DNA of 64,000 nucleotides from an uncultured Ruminococcus sp. Lineage in GTDB: Bacteria > Bacillota_A > Clostridia > Oscillospirales > Ruminococcaceae. Shown here in pieces: positions 1 to 10,175 of this stretch. A program made the position numbers and the translations under genes. Location of the stretch: the NCBI GenBank assembly GCA_900315975.1, contig ONBA01000008.1, positions 1 to 64,000 of the forward strand, in the 5' to 3' direction. Each line of letters starts with the position of its first letter. The stretch's first letter is position 1. The notes beneath the pieces were generated by a model. It made no database searches and was not told the origin of the DNA. It was given only the letters and a program-made list of their open reading frames with translations.

Positions 1-159
1 ATTCACTATGCGTGCCTAAACGGAGCTTCATTAGAAGGTTGTGATATGACAGGAGCTGATTTGCGTGGAACCGAATTGCCAGATGGATTTATGAGTCAGA
101 ATCAGGATGAGCAGATTAGCCATCTCAAATCTTTAAATATAAATGGTTTGAAAATATAA
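1..159 (+). CDS. Pentapeptide-repeat protein, C-terminal fragment
   Basis: This open frame enters from the left edge and stops at a TAA at 157-159, giving 52 visible residues. The pattern ACLNGASLEGCDMTGADLRG repeats every five residues with a central Leu/Met, the A(D/N)LxG consensus of pentapeptide repeats that fold into a right-handed beta helix. The rest is a short polar tail. Such proteins range from DNA mimics to effector modules, and the visible part does not decide the role. Base composition is AT-rich like the following operon, so it probably belongs to the same acquired island. It is not obviously co-transcribed with the ATPase gene, which has its own promoter 300 bases downstream. 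Confidence 0.6.
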   Translation: MHYACLNGASLEGCDMTGADLRGTELPDGFMSQNQDEQISHLKSLNINGLKI

Positions 160-526
160 TTATACAGTTGAAATACAGAAGTTCTAAATTACCATGAAAC
201 TACGCGGTTTCTAATGATTGTTAGTGATGATGCAGATTTGTCAATCATAAATCATAAGGTAGATGAATTGGTAATTGACTAAGATAGTGATAAGTATATT
301 TTTAAATTTATGAAGTTTAATAGTTGTATACAGTATTCTAAAATCGTAATTAATAAAATTGTTAGCAATATAATTTGACTTGCTTATAAAGAAAAACAGT
401 AAAAATTAACTGTGTGGACAATTTGAAGCTTATTTGCTTTTTAGAAAAAAATATTGAATTTCAAATTGAAAAGGTGTATAATTATAAAAAAGCGTGTAAA
501 GGAACATACAAAAGAAGTGTAAATTT
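160..526. other. AT-rich gene-free stretch upstream of the defence-like operon
   Basis: About 370 bases without a convincing gene. A 22-codon ORF (214-282, plus) has no ribosome binding site and is probably chance. The only clear signal is the promoter at 454-482. No strong terminator follows the pentapeptide-repeat gene. I looked for, but could not show, a small RNA gene of the kind that accompanies AvcD-type deaminases. Confidence 0.5.
454..482 (+). promoter_or_regulatory. Sigma-A-type promoter of the ATPase-methyltransferase-deaminase operon
   Basis: TTGAAT at 454-459 and TATAAT at 477-482 are separated by 17 bases. Transcription would start near 489 and give a leader of about 50 nt before the ATG at 539. 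Confidence 0.7.
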
Positions 527-538
527 TTGAGGTGTATT

Positions 539-1516
539 ATGGATAATAAAAGAAGCGTTTTAAACTCTTTTGATTCTTTTAATGATGCTGGTTTAAAAAA
601 TGTTGATAAAGTTTCATATCAAAGCTTTAATTTAATAATAGGAGAGAATGGTGCTGGAAAAACACGCTTCTTAAAATCTTTGCTTAATGAAATGAAGAAA
701 ACAAATAATTATCGTGTAATAACTATGTTTTTTCCAGACTTGTTAGATGTAAAGGGTGACATGGAAAATGATGAAGAAGCAGATTATATTTTTGATTTGC
801 TTCAAGGGAATACTGATGTTGATTTTAGGGATTTTTTAAGAATAATCGAAAGTGCTCCTGATAAAGAATCATTTTGGGAAGACTTTAGAAGTCGGATTAA
901 GATGAATGCAAGGATAGAAAGGGAACGGGCAGAAAAATCTCTTAATGATATTAATGATCTAATGGTTCAGCTTCTTAATCGAACTGTTGAACTTGATTCT
1001 GAAATGATATATATAAAGAAAAAAATCGGGAATGAAATTAGAAAAGTGGATATTAAAGATGCTTTTTTATTTCCAGAGATGTCACCAGGTGAAAAAATCC
1101 TTTTCTATTTTTGCTTGTTTTTGTATTATGTTCAAAATAATGAGAAAGAACTTGTAATTATAATCGATGAACCTGAGTGCCATTTGCACCCTAAGAAACT
1201 ATTAGAACTTGTTAGGCGATTAAAGAAGTTTGAAAATGTAAGAGAAATATGGATAGCTTCGCATTCATTATATTTAGTGCCTTTGTTTAAATTCGAAGAA
1301 ATAGTACTTATAGAAAATAGTAAAATCATTAATCGAAATAGTCTGATGTACAATAAAATCTATAACACATTGCTTGGGGAAAAGGATATAGATGTTTTTG
1401 AATTTATAAAATCTGTTGATAGTTGGATGTATTATCAATGGATTGTAGAGATGTTTTATTTGCCTCAGAGCATTGGTACCATAAATAGCAAGGATGAACA
1501 ATATTTGTTGATTTGA
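539..1516 (+). CDS. AAA/ABC-type ATPase (SMC/OLD-like), probable N-terminal part of a split ATPase-methyltransferase
   Basis: 325 residues. Visible motifs are a Walker A (GENGAGKT, residues 35-42), a short charged coiled-coil-like insert (about 120-170), an ABC signature-like SPGEK (182-186), a Walker B (LVIIIDEPE with D210/E211) and an H-loop IASHS (H242). This is the compact AAA_15/AAA_21 architecture found in many anti-phage systems, typically a sensor or engine for an effector. ATG 539 is preferred over the in-frame TTG at 527 because GAGGTG sits just upstream. The frame ends in TGA at 1514-1516, but the same frame then continues without another stop into the methyltransferase at 1559. 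The gene is AT-rich compared with the rest of the window, suggesting transfer. Substrate and partner are not determinable from sequence. Confidence 0.75.
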   Translation: MDNKRSVLNSFDSFNDAGLKNVDKVSYQSFNLIIGENGAGKTRFLKSLLNEMKKTNNYRVITMFFPDLLDVKGDMENDEEADYIFDLLQGNTDVDFRDFLRIIESAPDKESFWEDFRSRIKMNARIERERAEKSLNDINDLMVQLLNRTVELDSEMIYIKKKIGNEIRKVDIKDAFLFPEMSPGEKILFYFCLFLYYVQNNEKELVIIIDEPECHLHPKKLLELVRRLKKFENVREIWIASHSLYLVPLFKFEEIVLIENSKIINRNSLMYNKIYNTLLGEKDIDVFEFIKSVDSWMYYQWIVEMFYLPQSIGTINSKDEQYLLI

Positions 1517-1558
1517 GATTATTGCCTAAAACAAATAGAGGCTAATTCAAAGATTAAA

Positions 1559-2299
1559 ATGCTTGATTATGGTGCTGGAAAATGCAGAATATATGATTGC
1601 CTAAAAATAAACGGGGAAATGATAAATGGAAATATTGAATATGAGGCATTTGAGCCTAAGCCAGAAGATAATTATGAATATGATGAGAATATAAGGCTAT
1701 ATAGTAGAGCTGACGAAATAATGGATAACCGGTATAATATAATAATATTGTTAAATGTACTGCATGAAATACCCGTAACTGAATGGAGGGACGTATTTAA
1801 AAAAATTGGTGCAGCATTAGTTGAGGATGGTAAACTTATTTTTATCGAAGTTAAAAATCTTTCTCACGGAGAGCAACCATACGGAGATAATGGTTTTTTA
1901 ATTCTTAATGATGAAGCAGTAAGTATTTGCTTCCCAAAAGCTCAAAAAATATCAATGGATAACCAAAAAAGTAATGCGTGGGTGATTAATAAATCATCGT
2001 TGAATAATATTGATTCTGTTGATATAATTAATGCTATTGAGAGATTGCAAGAAAGCTGTAAAAAAGAATTATATAATGTCTATCATGAAAGAATTAATAT
2101 AGCACGTGAAGAGAATAAAATTGATGTATCAATGAAGGCGAGAAAATACGCATTTATTTCTCAACAGTATATTAATTCAAAATTTGCCATTGATATTTTA
2201 AAAGAATCTAGAATAAGCAGAGAAGTTAGTAAAGAGTCACATAAGAAAATGAAAACTTCAATTACTCCACCACCGATAAATAGAAAGGATAAAATATAA
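1559..2299 (+). CDS. Class I SAM-dependent methyltransferase domain, same frame as the upstream ATPase
   Basis: 246 residues starting right at motif I (MLDYGAGKCR). A second typical element is IIILLNVLHEIP (about 60-72), the post-II/IV strand of Rossmann methyltransferases. The C-terminal 100 residues are helical and charged. Normal members carry a helix before motif I. Here that helix (DYCLKQIEANSKIKM) lies in the same frame between the TGA at 1514-1516 and this ATG, and no good ribosome binding site serves ATG 1559 (AGAGG is about 18 bases away). The domain was therefore probably translated as the C-terminal half of the ATPase protein. Its stop overlaps the deaminase start (TAATG). The methyl acceptor is unknown. 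It lacks an N4/N6-adenine NPPY-type motif, so DNA methylation is not indicated. Confidence 0.65.
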   Translation: MLDYGAGKCRIYDCLKINGEMINGNIEYEAFEPKPEDNYEYDENIRLYSRADEIMDNRYNIIILLNVLHEIPVTEWRDVFKKIGAALVEDGKLIFIEVKNLSHGEQPYGDNGFLILNDEAVSICFPKAQKISMDNQKSNAWVINKSSLNNIDSVDIINAIERLQESCKKELYNVYHERINIAREENKIDVSMKARKYAFISQQYINSKFAIDILKESRISREVSKESHKKMKTSITPPPINRKDKI

Positions 2300-3924
2300 T
2301 GGATGAAGAAAACATAAAAGATATGCCTGATTCAGAGTTGTTTATTGCACTTGCTTCGCCTGTTGGAACTGATAGCTCAATAGTATTTGATGTTTTAAAG
2401 GAAAACTTGACTGAGTGCGGCTATTTTATATTTAAAATTAAAATATCATCTGAAATGATAATTCCTGAGTTGGCAGATAATGTTAATATGAATGATGCTT
2501 TTGAGCGCTTGAGTGCGTTAATGGATAAAGGTAACGAGCTTAGGGAGAAGAATGGAAACAACGCAATATTATCTCTAGGTGTACTTAAGGAAATTGTAAA
2601 AATTCGCACGAAAGAAGCTGAGAAAAATGCGTGGTCATTAAAAGGAAAAAAGTATGCATATATAATTGATAGTTTAAAACATAAAGAAGAAGTTAAACTT
2701 TTGAGATCAGTATATACAAATGCGTTTTATTTATTTGCCATTAATGAAAGCGAACGAGATAGAGAGAATTACCTAATTAATCATAAAAATATGGGAAAAC
2801 TCAATGCAAGTAAATTGATAGCGAGAGATCAATATGAAAATTTTGCTTGGGGTCAGCATACAAGAGATGTATTTGAATTAGCTGATTTTCATGTAACAAT
2901 AAATAGCGTTTCAAATGCTAATAAAAATAATGGTTATTCTAAAGAAAGAGATGAAATAAAAAAACAAGTCAATATTCAGATTTCGCGTATAGTTGATTTA
3001 ATGTTTGGATGTCCTTATCATACTGCGACGTTTGAGGAATATGCAATGTTTATGGCATATTCGACGGCTTTAAGATCTGGCGATTTGTCAAGGCAGGTTG
3101 GTGCGGTTATTGCAACGGATGATAATGAGATAATATCTATGGGAGCGAATGAGACACCTAAATATGGAGGCGGTCAGTATTGGGCTGATATTGGTAATTC
3201 AGATAAACGTGGCTGGAATGTTGATAACGGGCGAGATATGATGCTTAGACGAGATGATAACGAAGATACGATTATGGGATATGATCCTAATAAGACGGAA
3301 ATTCAGAGTATGGTTAAGTCTATAGTTGAAGATACAGATTGTTTTAATTATGATAGTTTAGAAATGAGTGCTACTGAGTTAGAAAAATATAAAAAGGATT
3401 TTTTTAACGGATTGTACAATAAATTGAAAAGCATAACGGAGTTTGGACGAACTGTTCATGCGGAGATGGCTGCAATGTTGTCGTGTGCTAGACATGGAAT
3501 AGCATTAGATGGAGCTACGTTGTATTGTAGTACCTTTCCATGCCATAATTGTGCTAGACATGCGGTGTATAGTGGCATTAAACGTATTGTATATATTGAA
3601 CCATATCCTAAAAGCAAAGCGCTAGAATTACATAGGGACTCAACTACTATAAATCATGAGGATGGTAAGGTCATATTCGATGCATTTACTGGAGTTGGGC
3701 CACGAAGATTTTTTGATTTGTTTTCGTTAAAATTGAGTTCTGGATATGATGTTGTAAGAAAGAACGAGCAAGATGATGTGGTCGTTTGGGAAAGACGAAC
3801 CTCTTGTTTACGTTGTTCTTCAAATCCGATTCAATATGTGGATCGCGAAACAAAAGAAATATATGATGCCTGTGTTGTTAGTAATGAAAATGATACAGAG
3901 AGCTTGGAGGAAAAAGATGAATAA
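2299..3924 (+). CDS. Anti-phage dCTP deaminase (AvcD/DCD-like: P-loop-like domain plus zinc deaminase)
   Basis: 541 residues, in the size range of the two-domain anti-phage dCTP deaminases. The N-terminal domain has a P-loop-like SPVGTD segment (about 20-25), degenerate relative to a classical Walker A but of the form seen in this family. The C-terminal domain has the zinc cytidine/deoxycytidylate deaminase signature HAE (H387, E389) and PCHNC (C415, C418), so the catalytic set is complete. An extra CxxC lies at 503/506. Family members deaminate dCTP (to dUTP) on infection and starve phage replication of dCTP. The start ATG overlaps the methyltransferase stop by one base and has AGAAAGGA upstream. 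A 60-aa gene overlaps its 3' end. Assignment to the family is strong; activity here is inferred. Confidence 0.85.
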   Translation: MDEENIKDMPDSELFIALASPVGTDSSIVFDVLKENLTECGYFIFKIKISSEMIIPELADNVNMNDAFERLSALMDKGNELREKNGNNAILSLGVLKEIVKIRTKEAEKNAWSLKGKKYAYIIDSLKHKEEVKLLRSVYTNAFYLFAINESERDRENYLINHKNMGKLNASKLIARDQYENFAWGQHTRDVFELADFHVTINSVSNANKNNGYSKERDEIKKQVNIQISRIVDLMFGCPYHTATFEEYAMFMAYSTALRSGDLSRQVGAVIATDDNEIISMGANETPKYGGGQYWADIGNSDKRGWNVDNGRDMMLRRDDNEDTIMGYDPNKTEIQSMVKSIVEDTDCFNYDSLEMSATELEKYKKDFFNGLYNKLKSITEFGRTVHAEMAAMLSCARHGIALDGATLYCSTFPCHNCARHAVYSGIKRIVYIEPYPKSKALELHRDSTTINHEDGKVIFDAFTGVGPRRFFDLFSLKLSSGYDVVRKNEQDDVVVWERRTSCLRCSSNPIQYVDRETKEIYDACVVSNENDTESLEEKDE

Positions 3925-4099
3925 TAATGAAATACAATTAATAATAGAAAAAAGAATAAAAAAGTGGCCAGAATGGAAAATAAATATGCTTAGTTATGAA
4001 AAACATATCCATTCTATAAGTTTGAAAATTGTTGAAAAAAAAGAATATGAGATTGATAAACATAAAAGTGAAAACGAGAAAGTTAAACTTAAAAAATAG
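3917..4099 (+). CDS. Small basic protein, last gene of the deaminase operon
   Basis: 60 residues from ATG 3917, overlapping the deaminase stop by 8 bases, with a strong GGAGG six bases upstream. The protein is Lys- and Glu-rich with net positive charge, has one WPEW motif and is predicted mostly helical. No signal peptide or membrane segment is visible. I do not recognise a family. The tight overlap and good ribosome binding site argue that it is translated with the deaminase, perhaps as a regulator, inhibitor or nucleic-acid-binding partner (inference). The IS3 element begins about 30 bases after its stop, so the operon may once have continued further. Confidence 0.6.
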   Translation: MNNNEIQLIIEKRIKKWPEWKINMLSYEKHIHSISLKIVEKKEYEIDKHKSENEKVKLKK

Positions 4100-4175
4100 A
4101 TTGCTATATAAATGATGTGGGTTTAAGAGTTGTCTAATGCTCCTTCTATATTTGGCGTGTTATGGTATAAAACGC

Positions 4176-5042
4176 TTACAGTGGTAGACCGCCTTCATTG
4201 AAGCTGTTGATCCTTTGCGTATTGTAGTAGCCGAAGATGTATCTGAAGATGATGGTCTTGACCTCTTCACGCTTCATTCGGTATGTAGGTATCTGATACA
4301 GCTTTTCTTTTTTCAGTGTGGCAAAGAAGCTCTCCATACGGGCATTATCGTAGCAATGGGCAGTACCGCTGAGGCTCTGGATGAGCCCGTTTGTAACAAG
4401 CTCCCTGCGGAAGGCGTAGCTTGTGTACTGGCAGCCACGATCGCTGTGAAGGACCGTTCCGTCGAGTCTACCGTACTTATCACGCAGCTGTTTTACGTTG
4501 TATATGCAGAGTTCTTTCTTCATGTTGTCACGCATTTCAAGAGCAACGATCTCACCGTTGAAGCAGTCGAGTATCGGCGAAACATAGAGCTTTCCGTCAG
4601 CGCACTGAACTTCAGTGATATCAGTCAGCAGTTTCTTCAGTGGCTTATCTGCACTGAAATTTCTTTTGATCAATTTCTCTCTGTTCTGGTTTTCAGTTTC
4701 AGCCTTTGTGATACCGTGAGGTCTGCGATGCCTGTGGATAAGCCCAGCTTCGCTCATAGTACGGTATACTGTTCGGAGGCTGACATGAGTACCCTTCTGT
4801 GCAAGAGCCGCCTGCATCCTTCTGACACCGTAATTCTTGTTGTCAGGATGCTCTGATAGTATTCCTTGTATTTTGACCAGAAGAAGCTGCCTTGCACCGG
4901 GCTTGCCCTGATTCTTGAGCCAGCGATAATAACCTGATTCGCTTATTTTCAGAAATCTGCATATTGCTTTCGCTCCGTACTTGCTGCGGAACTCGTTGAC
5001 GAACAGGTGGCGTTCGCTTGTCTTTACTTCTTCCGGTCTTTT
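4176..5042 (-). CDS. IS3-family transposase OrfB (DDE integrase), made by -1 frameshift
   Basis: The frame runs from the A-AAA-G slippery site at about 5038-5043 to the TAA at 4176-4178, giving roughly 288 residues. It contains the HTH_21-like N-terminal part and an rve integrase core with TDITEV (first D), SDRGCQY (second D) and NARMESFFATLKKE (catalytic E), so the DDE triad is intact. An internal ATG gives a 213-residue product from 4817, but the upstream 75 codons are clearly homologous to OrfB proteins (KYGAKAICRFLKISESGYYR). The protein ends soon after NEGGLPL, a few residues shorter than I expect for the family, so slight C-terminal truncation is possible. Confidence 0.8.
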   Translation of the reverse strand, partial: KRPEEVKTSERHLFVNEFRSKYGAKAICRFLKISESGYYRWLKNQGKPGARQLLLVKIQGILSEHPDNKNYGVRRMQAALAQKGTHVSLRTVYRTMSEAGLIHRHRRPHGITKAETENQNREKLIKRNFSADKPLKKLLTDITEVQCADGKLYVSPILDCFNGEIVALEMRDNMKKELCIYNVKQLRDKYGRLDGTVLHSDRGCQYTSYAFRRELVTNGLIQSLSGTAHCYDNARMESFFATLKKEKLYQIPTYRMKREEVKTIIFRYIFGYYNTQRINSFNEGGLPL

Positions 5043-5299
5043 GCGAAAAAACCGAGTGCATCCTTGAGAATATCATTTGCTTTACGAAGCTCGGCATTTT
5101 CACGCTCAAGCTCAAGATTACGCTGCTTAAGTTCTTCATCGGACATCTGATACTTCTTAGCTTTGGCAGCGGCATTTCGCTTGCTTCGCCAGTCTGAGAG
5201 TGTGTAATACTGGATACCTAACTGCTGAACAGCCTTTTTCAGCCCGATCTCGTCTGATAGCTTTAATGCTTCTTCTTTGAATTCTTTACTGTACTTCAT
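5024..5299 (-). CDS. IS3-family transposase OrfA
   Basis: 91 residues. The N-terminal helix-turn-helix (about 5-45, with QQLGIQYYTLSDW) is followed by a leucine-zipper coiled coil (about 55-85, ELKQRNLELERENAEL). This is the standard IS3 OrfA layout for end binding and multimerisation. The last codons contain gcA-AAA-Gac; a -1 slip there enters the OrfB frame and yields the OrfAB fusion transposase. The start has a GGGAAA-type ribosome binding site just upstream on the minus strand. Confidence 0.85.
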   Translation of the reverse strand: MKYSKEFKEEALKLSDEIGLKKAVQQLGIQYYTLSDWRSKRNAAAKAKKYQMSDEELKQRNLELERENAELRKANDILKDALGFFAKDRKK

Positions 5300-5368
5300 A
5301 GTCGTTTTCCCTTTCTGGTTTTATCATTTATATTCTACCAGATTTTTGGGTGTTTGTCGACTGCTCTT

Positions 5369-5578
5369 TCAGTATAACACTTCACAGATAGCTTTTGCTT
5401 TCGCGTCTGTATAGCTTGAGGTGTTGATTGTTGGATCAACCATGAGATTTGAACAGTAATGTTCAGTTTCATGGGCGATTATCTTTGTTATATAGCTATA
5501 TATAGACTTTTGACAAATTATATCATACTGAACAGCTTTTCTGGAAAAGCGGAAAAGTGTGTATAGAATACTAAAACA
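5369..5578 (-). pseudogene. Metallopeptidase (HExxH) fragment, no start codon
   Basis: A 69-codon open stretch on the minus strand, bounded by a stop at 5579-5581 and ended by TGA at 5369-5371. It encodes YITKIIAHETEHYCSNLM, where HETEH is a zinc-protease HExxH motif, followed by a short helical C-terminus ending in AKAICEVLY. No ATG/GTG with a ribosome binding site precedes it, and the stop lies a few bases from the estimated IS end. I read it as the C-terminal remnant of an ImmA/IrrE- or SprT-like gene damaged by the IS insertion or island assembly. The family is inferred from the one motif only. Confidence 0.4.
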
Positions 5579-5654
5579 TCAGGTATTCGAATCTTTTTTG
5601 TCTACTTTTTAAGGAACTGAAATCATAATTTTGACTTGATGTTTGAAATAGCCG

Positions 5655-5766
5655 TTTAGTATATGTCATTCATTTTATTCAGCTGACACATGCGTGTCTT
5701 GAAATAGACACGCATTTTTTATACTAATTTGTATACTAAAGTAAAGCCTACTCAAATGAGCAGGCT
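5655..5766. repeat. TATACTAA repeats and a hairpin at the island edge
   Basis: TATACTAA occurs at 5720-5727 and 5732-5739, with an inverted copy (TTTAGTATA) at 5655-5663. Just after them, AGCCTACTC/GAGCAGGCT (5745-5766) forms a near-perfect hairpin. Clustered short direct and inverted repeats of this kind resemble arm or core sites of tyrosine-recombinase elements. No integrase gene is in the window, so this is only a suggestion. Confidence 0.3.
5690..5720 (+). terminator. Rho-independent terminator
   Basis: Perfect 9-bp stem ATGCGTGTC/GACACGCAT with an 8-nt loop followed by six T. No complete gene ends immediately before it, so it probably belonged to a lost gene at the island edge. Confidence 0.6.
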
Positions 5767-5801
5767 CAGAGTAAAAAACTGATTGTTGTTACGTATTTAT
5801 C

Positions 5802-5820
5802 GGACGACCAATGGTCGTCC
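5802..5820. repeat. Perfect 9-bp palindrome GGACGACCA/TGGTCGTCC
   Basis: Two 9-bp arms separated by one base, followed by CTACA. A comparable GC-rich palindrome followed by TTACA occurs at 19208-19225, and another followed by TTAA at 55986-56009. It may be a small dispersed intergenic repeat. Confidence 0.4.
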
Positions 5821-5993
5821 CTACATAGCGGAATGCAGTGAATGTGAGATGAATAAATACTGTATTTCAATGCGCTGCAAGTTCGTAAACTAAGTTACAA
5901 CCTGTGATTGTATGTCTCCGAATCTCGTTTCATGAAATATGCTTGTTATAAAAACATCATTATGTGAGTAACAGGAATACCAATAATAGTAAG
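5821..5993. other. Intergenic sequence with no recognisable gene
   Basis: Together with the preceding repeats this completes the roughly 490-base gene-free stretch between the metallopeptidase remnant and the patatin gene. I see no ORF with a ribosome binding site. Confidence 0.4.
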
Positions 5994-6019
5994 AAATCGC
6001 TGTCACGGCAGCGATTTTT
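5994..6019 (+). terminator. Hairpin with T-tract
   Basis: AAATCGCTG/CAGCGATTT 9-bp stem, 6-nt loop, followed by TTATTT on the plus strand. No plus-strand gene ends directly upstream. Confidence 0.5.
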
Positions 6020-6072: not shown

Positions 6073-6921
6073 TTAATCTGAGAGGAATTCTTTTAATTCT
6101 GCAAGACGTTCACGAGCGGCATTTCGTCCTATGCGATAAGCTTCGAGCATAATTTCCGGGTCATGGGTAACATGACCAATAGGCAGAATATCTGGTGGAG
6201 CGATAACAAATGCATTACCTTCAGCTTCTGACTTACGAACGTGTTTCAGTTGTTCGTTGTACATTTTAGGTCTGCGGGAGTAAGCTTTAACGAGCTGAGG
6301 GTATTTTTTATAGAAGAGTTTAACAAGTGAATCACTGCGGCTTGGTTTTTTAATATAGTCACGAGGCTGAGTGAGGATAACTACATTTTTATCATAACCT
6401 GCTGACTCCATAAATTTAAGGGGGATAGAGTCGGATATACCACCGTCGAGGAATTTTCGTCCGTCTATTTCAACAATGCGGGCTGCAAGCGGCATAGACG
6501 CTGACGCGCGAATCCATTCAAGGGTACTGCCTGTAGCGATGTGGCAATTATGATAAACAGGTTTACCGGTTGTAATATCAGTAGCGACAACATAGAAAGA
6601 CATAGGATTATTTTCAAATACCTCGTTAGCGAATGGGTCAAGTTTTTCGGGGATTGTATGGTAGCAGAATTCTGCGCCGAACATATCGCCTGTTCTGAAA
6701 AGAGAGCGGAAGCTGCAATAGCGTTTATCCCTGCAAAAGCGCAGGTTATAGCGTATACTGCGTCCATTCTGTTTAGATTTATAGTTACAGCCGAAGCAAG
6801 CGCCGGCAGAAACACCAACTGACCCGTCAAAAGAAATACCATTTTCCATAAGAACATCAGTAACTCCGCAGGTAAAAATACCTCGCATAGCGCCGCCTTC
6901 CATAACAAGACCGTATTTCAT
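6073..6921 (-). CDS. Patatin-like phospholipase
   Basis: 282 residues from ATG 6919-6921, chosen because AGGAGG lies nine bases upstream; an open extension to 7038 has no ribosome binding site. Motifs are the oxyanion GGAMRG (9-14), the nucleophile elbow GVSAG (Ser38) and the DGG of the Ser-Asp dyad (D159). This is the bacterial YjjU/RssA-type patatin fold, a cytosolic acyl hydrolase of phospholipids or related lipids; the substrate is not known. There is no signal peptide. It is monocistronic, with its own terminator. All catalytic residues are present, so it is probably active. Confidence 0.85.
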   Translation of the reverse strand: MKYGLVMEGGAMRGIFTCGVTDVLMENGISFDGSVGVSAGACFGCNYKSKQNGRSIRYNLRFCRDKRYCSFRSLFRTGDMFGAEFCYHTIPEKLDPFANEVFENNPMSFYVVATDITTGKPVYHNCHIATGSTLEWIRASASMPLAARIVEIDGRKFLDGGISDSIPLKFMESAGYDKNVVILTQPRDYIKKPSRSDSLVKLFYKKYPQLVKAYSRRPKMYNEQLKHVRKSEAEGNAFVIAPPDILPIGHVTHDPEIMLEAYRIGRNAARERLAELKEFLSD

Positions 6922-7216
6922 TTTGAAAATCCTCCTTAGTAGCAACTGGTATATATTATAACTTATATTGAGAAAAATGTCAATAATATGTTGATGATGA
7001 GTAAAGTGTCTACAATAACCGCCGTTAGGCGAGCACAAATTCTTTATAATATGTGGAATTGGAGTGCTTCCCTTAGCGGAATTTGTGGGCTACCGAGCCG
7101 TAAATTTACGGTACATATTCGGTATCCTGCGAAACCGCCAAAGGGGGCTCCCCTTTGCGCGTCACATTTTATTATGTCAATCTCACTTTGCCCTAAATGG
7201 TTGAGCAGACATTAAG
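6922..7216. other. Intergenic region with palindromes
   Basis: No gene is supported. It contains a 14-bp perfect palindrome CCGTAAATTTACGG (7098-7111) and a hairpin CAAAGGGG/CCCCTTTG with a 3-nt loop (7139-7157). Both are outside coding sequence and may be repeat-element remnants. The minus-strand patatin promoter must lie near 6940-6990. Confidence 0.4.
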
Positions 7217-7247
7217 CAAAAAGCCCGAAGAGAGTGAATCTTCGGGC
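7217..7247 (-). terminator. Terminator of the GH9 gene
   Basis: GCCCGAAGA/TCTTCGGGC 9-bp stem followed on the minus strand by TTTTTG, directly after the GH9 stop. Confidence 0.8.
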
Positions 7248-7254
7248 ATACTTT

Positions 7255-9978
7255 TTATTTATTCTTATTGTCGTATTTTAGTTTAATAATTTTGTAAACG
7301 AATACCAACACTGCGATACCCATTACAATAAAAGCGAAAGCAATAATTGCGATAACGACGATAATTACCGGGAAACCGCTGTTTGATTTTTCGGTGGCTT
7401 TGTCGCCTGATTTAGTAGTTTTAGCAGGTTTGGTGGAATCAGTTTTAGTAGACTTAGTGGTAGACTGCGAATCAGGCTTTATCTCATCGTCATCATCGGA
7501 ACCGCCGTTGTTGGAGATACCGGCAGAGCGACCGGTTTCGCCGATTATTATACCGCCGTTTTCTTCAGCGAGGAAGCCGGCAGTCCAGGCGAGGGAAGCG
7601 TTCCAGTTGATAGTACACTCGTTAACAGACCATGCTTCGATGTGGTCGAGGTAGCATTTCTGAGGCGGTATCTGTCCCTTTTTCCAGCCGCTGCCCTGAA
7701 CCCACGGGTCCTGCATACCTGAGTTCGGACCGCCGCAGAGAACACCGCATGGTGCTTTAGGGAATGTGTCATCAATAAGCCAGGACCAGTAGCGGTGATG
7801 TGGGAATTCGATAGCGTGAGTACCGTAACCCGTCACGTAGGAATAGTCCATGGCATTTCTGCCGAGGAGGTAGTCCATACCGCCGATAACACCGTCCATG
7901 TACTTATCGTCGTCACTGAGTAAGTAAGCGAAAGCAATGACGATGGAATTATCGGCAACGAACGAGTTGCTGCCCCATACATAGCCTTCATCGGAGTCAT
8001 TATAAGCGAGTTTGCTTGAACCGTATGGAAGACCGTATCCCTGTTCGTTTTCGACACCGATGAACGAGTCGGCAGCGGAACAGATGTTATCGCTGATAGA
8101 TTCAGCTTCCTTTTTGTCGAATGAGTCGGGATTGAGAGCAGCACTTAGAGTACCGAGACCGGCAGTATTACCCCAGTCGAAGCTGCCGACAGTGTTAACA
8201 CTTTCGCCGCCGTCGAGGGAAGTAGGTATTTCGAGGAAGAACTTAGAATCCTTAGCATCGGAGTAATATTTTTTATCGCCTGTAGTGATAAAAAGCTCCA
8301 TAGCAGCCCAGTAGAATTCGTCGTCAACGTCAGTGTCACCGTAAGCACCGCCGCCGATTGATTCATCGAGCGGAGCGAACATATCTGGATGTTTTTTAGC
8401 GGCAGCGTAGCATTTTTCGGCAGCTTCAAGGCACTTATCAGAGAACTTGTCGTCGATGCCGTCCCATAGTCTTGCCGACTGAGCAGCGCACGCAGCGAGG
8501 TTGAGAGTAGCGGCAGTCGTAGGCGGTTTAACGATACGTTTCATATCGTCGTCCGCGGGAGCGATACCGAGAGCGGTCCACTTTTCATCGTGAGCCTTAT
8601 GGTAAGCCATATCCTTGAAATCACCGCTGTCGACTATCATACTGAACATCCAGTCCATTTCCCAGCGTGCTTCATCGAGGAGGTCAGGGAAGCCGTTGGT
8701 ATTTTCGGGGAGGTTCATAGTACCGTCAGCGTATTTGTCCTCGAAACCGTATTTAAGAGCAGTTTCGTACTGGTCCTGAAGCATCCAAAGTGAGAATCCG
8801 CCGTTTACAACGTATTTTCCGTGGTCACCAGCATCATACCAGCCGCCGGTAACGTCGATAGAGCCGCTTGAACCGGAATAACCCCAAGTCTGTTCGATTT
8901 CAGCCATATCCTTCGGATGACCGGCAGCACGGGCAAGAGCGTCAGCATCGCCTGAGCTGATGAGGGACGATTCGATTTCGATACCGCTTCGATTCTGATA
9001 GAAATAGTTGAGTGAATCGTATAGCATACTTGAATAGACATCACTTCCGCCGATTTTGATATCGCGGCTAACAGCGCCGTTATCGGCTTCGATGTGGAAA
9101 GTGCCCTCCTCATCGAAGTCGGAGAAATCGAGGATATGAACATCGTCATCGGAGTCATTATCGTGACCGAAAGGTGTACTTTTACCGGAGTAGACACTTT
9201 TGCCGCTGTCGTCGATAATATCAAAACTTACACCTTTTTTATCGTCGCACAGCATAGTAGCACGTTTAGCGCGGTCAGGGAAGTAACCGACCTGATTTGT
9301 GAGGATCTGAGCGCGTTCCCATTCAGCGGGAGCTTTGAAGTCGTTCTCATCACTTGTAAGGTCGATGAGGGACATATTATCGAATGTTATTTCAGTACCT
9401 GCGGGGAAACATCCGCCGGGAGTATACTGACCGTCGCCGCCGAGGTGGAAAGCCCACTCAGCAACGTCGAGGGACTGTGAGGGAGTGAAAGTAACCTCAA
9501 CCTTTTTAGTTTCATTAGCATTTATCTGAATGGGGTCCCAAGTGTTATTGAAGTCGCCGTCACCTGTAGACATATTATGCCAGATTTCGACATTACCATC
9601 GAGGTTGCCGATTTTGGTGTAATACTTACCGCTTTTAGAAGCGGTTATTTCATAGCTGGCTTTATACTGGTGACCTGAAACGATTTTAAGACCGCGGTGA
9701 CGGAACTGGCAGTCCCAGCGGTCCTCACCGCCCTGAGAAGCGCCGCCGGGGTTAACGATAGTGATTTTGTAGACTCCCTTGTCGATTTCAAAGTCCATTT
9801 CACCGGGAGCTGATTCGCAGATATGCCACGGAAGACCAGCGCCCTTGTCGAAATCGGTCTGACCGAGCTGCTGACCTGCATCAGCGACCAGCGGACATAC
9901 AGTCGGAGCTGTACTGCCCATAACGAGGACAGCAGCCAAAAGACCTGAAACTGCTTTGCCTATAAGCCTGTTTCTCAT
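7255..9978 (-). CDS. Membrane-anchored family 9 glycoside hydrolase (endoglucanase/cellulase)
   Basis: 907 residues from ATG at 9976-9978 (GGAGG eight bases upstream). Order of domains: signal peptide (1 to about 34), a CBM4/9-type beta-sandwich (about 38-210, GQTDFDKGAGLPWH), an Ig-like CelD_N domain (about 225-320) and the (alpha/alpha)6 GH9 catalytic domain (about 330-820) with WYDAGDHGKY (D382, D385) and the general acid in SVNECTINWN (E787). It ends with an Asp/Thr/Lys linker and a hydrophobic helix (about 868-892) with a basic tail. It has no dockerin, so the enzyme should sit on the cell surface through the C-terminal membrane helix rather than in a cellulosome. It hydrolyses beta-1,4-glucans by inversion (family knowledge). 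Single-gene transcript. Confidence 0.92.
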   Translation of the reverse strand: MRNRLIGKAVSGLLAAVLVMGSTAPTVCPLVADAGQQLGQTDFDKGAGLPWHICESAPGEMDFEIDKGVYKITIVNPGGASQGGEDRWDCQFRHRGLKIVSGHQYKASYEITASKSGKYYTKIGNLDGNVEIWHNMSTGDGDFNNTWDPIQINANETKKVEVTFTPSQSLDVAEWAFHLGGDGQYTPGGCFPAGTEITFDNMSLIDLTSDENDFKAPAEWERAQILTNQVGYFPDRAKRATMLCDDKKGVSFDIIDDSGKSVYSGKSTPFGHDNDSDDDVHILDFSDFDEEGTFHIEADNGAVSRDIKIGGSDVYSSMLYDSLNYFYQNRSGIEIESSLISSGDADALARAAGHPKDMAEIEQTWGYSGSSGSIDVTGGWYDAGDHGKYVVNGGFSLWMLQDQYETALKYGFEDKYADGTMNLPENTNGFPDLLDEARWEMDWMFSMIVDSGDFKDMAYHKAHDEKWTALGIAPADDDMKRIVKPPTTAATLNLAACAAQSARLWDGIDDKFSDKCLEAAEKCYAAAKKHPDMFAPLDESIGGGAYGDTDVDDEFYWAAMELFITTGDKKYYSDAKDSKFFLEIPTSLDGGESVNTVGSFDWGNTAGLGTLSAALNPDSFDKKEAESISDNICSAADSFIGVENEQGYGLPYGSSKLAYNDSDEGYVWGSNSFVADNSIVIAFAYLLSDDDKYMDGVIGGMDYLLGRNAMDYSYVTGYGTHAIEFPHHRYWSWLIDDTFPKAPCGVLCGGPNSGMQDPWVQGSGWKKGQIPPQKCYLDHIEAWSVNECTINWNASLAWTAGFLAEENGGIIIGETGRSAGISNNGGSDDDDEIKPDSQSTTKSTKTDSTKPAKTTKSGDKATEKSNSGFPVIIVVIAIIAFAFIVMGIAVLVFVYKIIKLKYDNKNK

Positions 9979-10175
9979 AAAAAAACCTCCAGATTGCCGC
10001 CGGATAATGAGGGGAGACGGCATAAAATACACTATTACTTTAATACAATTCTGAAAAAAAGTAAATAACAAAACTGAAAAATTTACATTTTCTAAATATA
10101 AAACGGCAAAAGCGCGTTAAAACAGGTTATTCATGGAATAATTTTGTGCATTTTTTGTTTACGTTACCTGCATAC

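What the first reader, a model, noticed from the sequence alone, without database searches (positions are those of the whole stretch)
454..4099. Compact ATPase / methyltransferase / dCTP-deaminase / small-protein operon: candidate undescribed anti-phage system
Seen: one sigma-A promoter, then four overlapping or in-frame genes. They encode a compact AAA/ABC ATPase, a SAM methyltransferase, a two-domain deaminase with complete HAE/PCxxC zinc motifs and a 60-aa basic protein. All are AT-rich compared with the rest of the window and flanked by an IS and repeats. Known: AvcD/DCD deaminases protect against phage by destroying dCTP and are normally paired with a small RNA/toxin-antitoxin regulator or stand alone. 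I know of no described system that couples the deaminase to an ATPase plus methyltransferase. Inference: the ATPase-methyltransferase acts as sensor or inhibitor that releases the deaminase during infection.
Basis: partly seen in the sequence, partly recalled or inferred. Interest (0 to 1): 0.85.

Follow-up and report, generated by a model that had tools for sequence, protein, structure and literature searches.

The report
dCTP-deaminase defence with ATPase-methyltransferase partner
A horizontally acquired bacterial gene cluster pairs a known phage-starving enzyme (a dCTP deaminase) with a fused ATPase-methyltransferase and a tiny conserved protein, a combination that recurs in other bacteria and that I did not find described, although the fused gene is broken by a stop codon in this strain.

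Summary
The coupling is real; the gene count is not. The 'ATPase' and 'methyltransferase' are one frame, an ATPase-methyltransferase fusion (ATPMT, 539-2299), cut by an in-frame TGA at 1514-1516; uninterrupted homologues exist, one 99% identical. The deaminase (DCD, 2299-3924) belongs to the known anti-phage dCTP deaminase family (NF041025, 436.9 bits, cut-off 400). The 60-aa protein (3917-4099) belongs to an unnamed WPxWK family found after 12 of 13 related deaminases examined, with or without ATPMT. ATPMT-DCD pairing recurs: DCD adjoins ATPMT at two other loci, 19 of 63 close ATPMT clusters share an exact contig length with a DCD cluster (controls: mean 0.87, maximum 4), the proteins' distances correlate (r 0.85; 2,000 permutations reach 0.33), and linked DCDs form one clade. 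But 0 of 21 other DCD loci carry ATPMT. The ATPase resembles PtuA and AriA, the methyltransferase class-I enzymes. Best model, inferred: ATPMT senses infection and controls the deaminase, PARIS- or Septu-like; the small protein restrains or positions it. New variant of a known kind. No function was tested.

The parts
454..482 (+). sigma-70-type promoter-like match (TTGAAT, 17 nt, TATAAT) upstream of the operon
   Evidence: not above the shuffled expectation for this AT-rich region
539..2299 (+). ATPMT: one reading frame for an ABC-type ATPase fused to a class-I methyltransferase, interrupted by an in-frame TGA (586 codons read through)
   Evidence: ATPase AAA_21 56.8 bits; Methyltransf_23 26.4 bits, just under Pfam's 27; intact homologues exist
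1514..1516 (+). in-frame TGA in the linker between the ATPase and methyltransferase domains
2299..3924 (+). anti-phage dCTP deaminase (DCD), 541 aa, HAE and PCHNC zinc motifs
   Evidence: NF041025 436.9 bits, cut-off 400; PADLOC dCTPase 504.9 bits; dCMP_cyt_deam_1 66.6 bits
3917..4099 (+). 60-aa WPxWK small protein, start overlapping the DCD stop by 8 nt
4176..5299 (-). transposase ORFs directly downstream (IS3-like by recalled label; boundary of the acquired segment, not part of the system)
   Evidence: rve, HTH_Tnp_1

Best explanation
This is a horizontally acquired anti-phage nucleotide-depletion module with three components: ATPMT (an AriA/PtuA-like ABC ATPase fused to a class-I methyltransferase), a dCTP deaminase effector, and a small WPxWK companion. 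Most likely working: in uninfected cells the deaminase is held inactive by the small protein and/or by ATPMT. A phage-made trigger (a phage protein, or a change in ATP, nucleotide or SAM state) is read by ATPMT. The freed or activated deaminase converts dCTP to dUTP and starves phage DNA synthesis. Shown here: gene content, frames, family membership of the deaminase, recurrence of the pairing, co-divergence of the two proteins, and association of the small protein with related deaminases in the samples searched. Inferred: dCTP deamination by this protein, who inhibits or activates whom, the trigger, and the role of the methyltransferase. In this strain ATPMT is cut after the ATPase domain, so the copy is probably a decayed or altered version of the system in which deaminase and small protein stay intact.
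Against: ATPMT is broken in the window, so this copy may not work as a three-part system. 0 of 21 DCD loci have ATPMT, and among the ATPMT loci fetched only L001 and L002 have DCD (L139, L171 and L198 are refetches of these two). The 19 contig matches rest on equal contig lengths, not on seen contigs, and both hit lists were cut at 120. The fold match is to the ATPase fold only; AriA/PtuA similarity does not prove a sensor role. A strain that keeps an intact DCD with a truncated ATPMT suggests that full-length ATPMT is not its only restraint.
Confidence: 0.55

Rival explanations
1. Core two-gene system: DCD plus WPxWK protein is the complete toxin and regulator, the small protein being a protein counterpart of the AvcI RNA. 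ATPMT is an independent defence gene that one clade of these cassettes picked up and carries alongside.
For: Small protein present with DCD whether or not ATPMT is there, at 12 of 13 related loci; distant ATPMTs occur without DCD and without a shared neighbour, so ATPMT may work alone; the window keeps DCD and small protein intact while ATPMT is broken.
Against: ATPMT and DCD co-diverge over 22 pairs, and the linked DCDs form one clade in which no row is known to lack ATPMT, though 13 of 35 are unknown; gene overlap in the window suggests co-expression.
Confidence: 0.27
2. ATPMT is the activator or substrate handler, not the restraint: the methyltransferase modifies DCD, a nucleotide or a tRNA on infection and so switches the deaminase on.
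Against: No substrate evidence; similarity to many small-molecule methyltransferases is equally good.
Confidence: 0.13
3. In this strain the locus is simply a decaying foreign island with no present function; the TGA is either a real nonsense allele or an assembly error.
For: In-frame TGA; a transposase at its edge; L006 shows another degraded ATPMT with several stops.
Against: DCD and the small protein are intact, with their motifs.
Confidence: 0.05

Closest known systems
Anti-phage dCTP deaminase (NF041025; PADLOC dCTPase)
   Same: Deaminase over the NF041025 cut-off and 504.9 bits to PADLOC dCTPase; two-domain layout, HAE/PCHNC.
   Different: The model describes the deaminase alone; here it is followed by a WPxWK protein and, in one clade, accompanied by ATPMT.
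AvcID type III toxin-antitoxin (Vibrio, E. coli ETEC)
   Same: Deoxycytidine-nucleotide deaminase effector; AvcD depletes dC nucleotides on infection (PMC10511110, passages).
   Different: AvcI is a non-coding RNA; here the conserved neighbour is a small protein. More divergent DCD loci, such as the Klebsiella plasmid L222 and the V. coralliilyticus plasmid L223, lack the WPxWK protein. Whether an AvcI-like RNA exists here could not be settled.
PARIS (AriA-AriB)
   Same: AriA is the best-scoring PADLOC family for the ATPase (60.3 bits); a regulator ATPase beside an effector enzyme.
   Different: No Toprim AriB in the window's operon; effector is a deaminase; ATPase is fused to a methyltransferase.
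Septu / retron Ec78 and Ec83 PtuA-PtuB
   Different: No HNH nuclease found in the operon; methyltransferase fusion and deaminase partner.
Clover (CloA dGTPase with CloB)
   Same: A dNTP-depleting effector controlled by a second protein (PMC12265719, abstract).
   Different: CloB is a nucleotidyltransferase making an inhibitory nucleotide; no ATPase-methyltransferase is mentioned in the passages searched.

Membership tests
Anti-phage dCTP deaminase (NF041025) | whole-protein score over the curated cut-off of 400 bits | tested here: met
   436.9 bits
Anti-phage dCTP deaminase (NF041025) | zinc-binding HAE and PCxxC motifs | tested here: met
   H387-A-E389 and P414-C-H-N-C418, invariant in the three-sequence alignment
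Anti-phage dCTP deaminase (NF041025) | dCTP deamination and phage protection | not testable with these tools
   needs an assay
AvcID type III toxin-antitoxin | AvcI antitoxin RNA beside the deaminase gene | tested here: inconclusive
   Rfam scan of 1-6000 gave one match, at E 0.45, to a plasmodium snoRNA; I do not know whether an AvcI model is in Rfam
PARIS | Toprim nuclease AriB next to the ATPase | tested here: not met
   Pfam and PADLOC scans of the parts at 527-4099 show no Toprim protein
Septu | HNH nuclease PtuB next to PtuA | tested here: not met
   no HNH domain in the scanned parts
Restriction-modification or BREX-type DNA methylation system | DNA methyltransferase domain | tested here: not met
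   only Methyltransf_23 and Methyltransf_12 match, no DNA methylase family, and no PADLOC match for the domain
ATPMT-DCD-WPxWK variant as defined here | all three genes intact and adjacent | tested here: not met
   in the window ATPMT is interrupted by TGA; all three are intact at L002 and, with a WPLE variant of the small protein, at L001

The most novel reading that the evidence does not exclude
ATPMT is a previously unrecognised, modular infection sensor: an AriA/PtuA-like ATPase whose fused methyltransferase reads a SAM- or methylation-linked cue and that has been coupled at least twice to nucleotide-destroying effectors, a dCTP deaminase in one clade and an HD-domain protein in another (L005, L199). 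The WPxWK proteins are a new family of dedicated protein regulators (antitoxins or adaptors) of dCTP deaminases, the protein counterpart of the AvcI RNA.
Probability: 0.3. Interest if true: 0.78.

Novelty: new variant of a known kind. Interest (0 to 1): 0.6.

Why it matters
How dCTP-deaminase defences are kept silent and triggered is explained, in what I read, only for the AvcI RNA type. A clade with a conserved protein companion and an ATPase-methyltransferase partner gives a directly testable route to protein-based sensing in nucleotide-depletion immunity, and the small WPxWK family is a simple marker for finding more such loci.

Tried and rejected
Rejected: four separate genes (one fused frame with TGA). 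Rejected: TGA decoded as an amino acid; a near-identical uninterrupted homologue and lack of conservation at that column make a plain stop likelier, though recoding was not tested. Rejected: classical restriction-modification (no DNA methylase match). Rejected: ATPMT as a general partner of dCTP deaminases.

Led nowhere or weak: ATPMT in the plasmid and phage collections, no match; first genome-contig scan with the single protein, no relative; clustering of 391 neighbour ORFs around 34 ATPMT loci at E <= 1e-8, no cluster shared by three or more loci; Rfam; ATPMT in 216 genomes of the order of G007 and in 247 of the family of G002, only the centre itself each time. In some searches only 3 to 6 first-look candidates per genome were scored, so misses are possible. 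The small-family contig-length test is no better than chance by count: 2 matches to ATPMT clusters (null maximum 2) and 3 to DCD clusters (null maximum 4).

Literature searches for the combination; none of the listed titles and abstract starts names it. sought PARIS and Septu papers. Passages were seen in PMC10511110, PMC11455837, PMC12839542 (a reference only) and PMC10853773; the abstract, opening and passages in PMC12265719. No paper was read whole. Four papers sought by recalled DOI (Tal 2022, Hsueh 2022, an ABC-ATPase classification, a deaminase-evolution paper) are not held, so 'not described' holds only for what could be searched.

Full report
What is in the sequence. The ATPase ORF (527-1516; natural start probably ATG 539, as in the homologue P0004) and the methyltransferase ORF (1559-2299) are in the same frame, separated only by a TGA at 1514-1516. 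Read through, the frame is 586 codons. The deaminase runs 2299-3924, its ATG overlapping the ATPMT stop (TAATG), and the 60-aa ORF runs 3917-4099, overlapping the deaminase stop by 8 nt. G+C is 31.0% over 454-4099 against 45.5% for 5400-64000; the lowest of 110 equally long windows there is 40.8%. Transposase ORFs follow at 4176-5299. The promoter-like match at 454-482 is real as a pattern but the region has no more such matches than shuffles.

ATPMT is one protein family. Searching with the read-through frame gave 174 proteins at E <= 1e-3, of which 120 are listed. Of these 120, 119 are at least 500 aa long, 118 carry the Walker A pattern used, 120 carry DEPE and 120 carry the NxLHE methyltransferase motif. 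An uninterrupted homologue 99% identical exists (P0004). At 34 loci with an ATPase-plus-methyltransferase match, 33 have one uninterrupted frame; L006 is degraded, L025 starts at a contig edge, and for L018 I rely because my script picked an antisense frame. The stop lies in the linker between the domains, so the window copy can make at most an ATPase-domain protein of 325 residues from ATG 539; the next in-frame ATG (1559) falls inside methyltransferase motif I. Whether the TGA is biological or an assembly error cannot be told here.

The deaminase is a known kind. NF041025 scores 436.9 bits (cut-off 400) and PADLOC dCTPase 504.9 bits; the zinc motifs are present. Solved structures match only its deaminase domain, by sequence.

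The pairing recurs. DCD lies divergently next to ATPMT at L001 (Lachnospiraceae MAG contig, beside phage TerL and portal genes) and L002 (a MAG labelled Muribaculaceae); their DCDs are 44% identical to the window's and their ATPMTs about 36%. In the protein database I compared the longest-contig length of the 63 close ATPMT clusters (P0004-P0066, the range from which alignment A2 had been drawn, before the deaminase search) with the 119 listed deaminase clusters. 19 of 63 match exactly; shifting the lengths by 1 to 50 either way gives a mean of 0.87 and a maximum of 4; the 57 distant ATPMTs give 0. If these pairs were mostly false the two proteins' distances should not agree, but they do: r 0.85 over 22 pairs (19 matched, L001, L002, window; null maximum 0.33) and 0.84 over 18 pairs without the window's group (null maximum 0.35), 2,000 permutations each. 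In a 62-row deaminase tree the 22 linked deaminases lie on one side of a branch with 100/100 support; that clade of 35 rows also holds 13 whose context is unknown and none known to lack ATPMT. Linked rows were chosen for being linked, so this shows clustering, not frequency.

Results against a general pairing. Among 391 genomes of the class of G001, 3 exceed the NF041025 cut-off; one is G001 itself, chosen for ATPMT, and the other two (G059, G209) have none. Five further genomes with 233-261 bits, under the cut-off, show no ATPMT in their short fetched loci either (L172-L176). None of the 21 deaminase-bearing loci has ATPMT in its flanks, which are short for some. At E <= 1e-30 ATPMT is found in 1 of 391, 3 of 348, 1 of 247 and 1 of 216 genomes, each count including the centre; only 3 to 6 first-look candidates per genome were scored, so these are lower bounds. 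In one search, 88 of 391 genomes match at E <= 1e-3, but apart from the centre none is better than 2e-12 and the matches are partial. Distant ATPMTs in Bacteroidetes and Proteobacteria sit in varied contexts with no neighbour shared by three or more loci (the printout was cut).

The small protein. Its core WPxWK is invariant in the ten members aligned. It starts between 35 nt before and 72 nt after the deaminase stop (starts chosen by eye) at the window, L001 (variant WPLE), L002, L201, L202, L204, L205, L206, its near-copy L207, L208, L219 and L220. L215, a deaminase fragment, has none: 12 of 13 loci with deaminases of at least 36% identity. Of the ten more divergent deaminase loci tested none has a WPxW[KRQ] ORF within 300 nt; one frame at L213 contains WPLWG, probably by chance. 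A database search with the alignment gave 81 proteins at E <= 10 (66 at E <= 1e-3), all with WPxW[KRQ], none with a functional name; candidates were gathered by shared five-residue words, which favours that motif. In the same 391 genomes the only strong matches (E 5e-20 and 9e-19) lie right after the deaminases of G059 and G209; three weak ones (E 0.001 to 0.008) are probably chance, and the G001 variant was missed. The predicted model is two helices, pLDDT 79.5, pTM 0.40. So the small protein belongs with the deaminase rather than with ATPMT.

A second coupling. At L005 (Treponema MAG) and L199 (G575, family of G001) distant ATPMTs are followed by a gene of 941 and 919 aa with an HD domain (32.0 and 35.8 bits; weak PADLOC dGTPase match, 30.9 bits, for L199 only), then a gene of 278 and 274 aa without a Pfam match and a HerA-like ATPase. 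The N-terminal part looks SIR2-like to me by eye, but no Pfam model matched. The first parts of the two proteins are 40% identical over 419 columns. This suggests ATPMT as a module that pairs with different, possibly nucleotide-attacking, effectors.

Verdict. Ordinary part: a known dCTP deaminase on a foreign AT-rich segment, with a broken companion gene. New part: a recurring fused ATPase-methyltransferase partner and a dedicated small-protein family. No function was tested.

Noticed in passing
L005:7908-14878 and L199:4578-11538: Distant ATPMT genes followed by an HD-domain protein of 941 and 919 aa (N-terminal part SIR2-like by eye only), a 278/274-aa protein and a HerA-like ATPase: the same four-gene order in a Treponema MAG and in G575.
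   Followed up: partly
L001:375-6567: The ATPMT-DCD pair lies beside TerL and portal genes, with a RelB-like antitoxin gene between TerL and portal, suggesting that the system can travel on phages.
   Followed up: partly
L008, L011, L014, L026, L030 and other distant ATPMT loci: ATPase-methyltransferase fusions in Bacteroidetes and Proteobacteria in varied chromosomal contexts with no recurring neighbour, possibly single-gene defence systems.
   Followed up: partly
L006:4599-5683: Another degraded ATPMT with several stops and no deaminase in the fetched flanks.
   Followed up: no
L169:2786-3652: A trypsin-like peptidase gene (Trypsin_2, 40.2 bits) directly upstream of a deaminase plus WPxWK pair without ATPMT.
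   Followed up: no
P0256, P0280, P0287, P0288, P0290: WPxWK proteins in Vibrio, Photobacterium and Pseudomonas genomes named only as hypothetical; the V. nigripulchritudo one (P0256) follows a dCTP deaminase on a plasmid (L220).
   Followed up: partly
window 6073-10071 (-): Next to the island: a patatin-like phospholipase and a glycoside hydrolase family 9 protein, suggesting a fibre-degrading gut or rumen Clostridia host (recalled, not tested).
   Followed up: no
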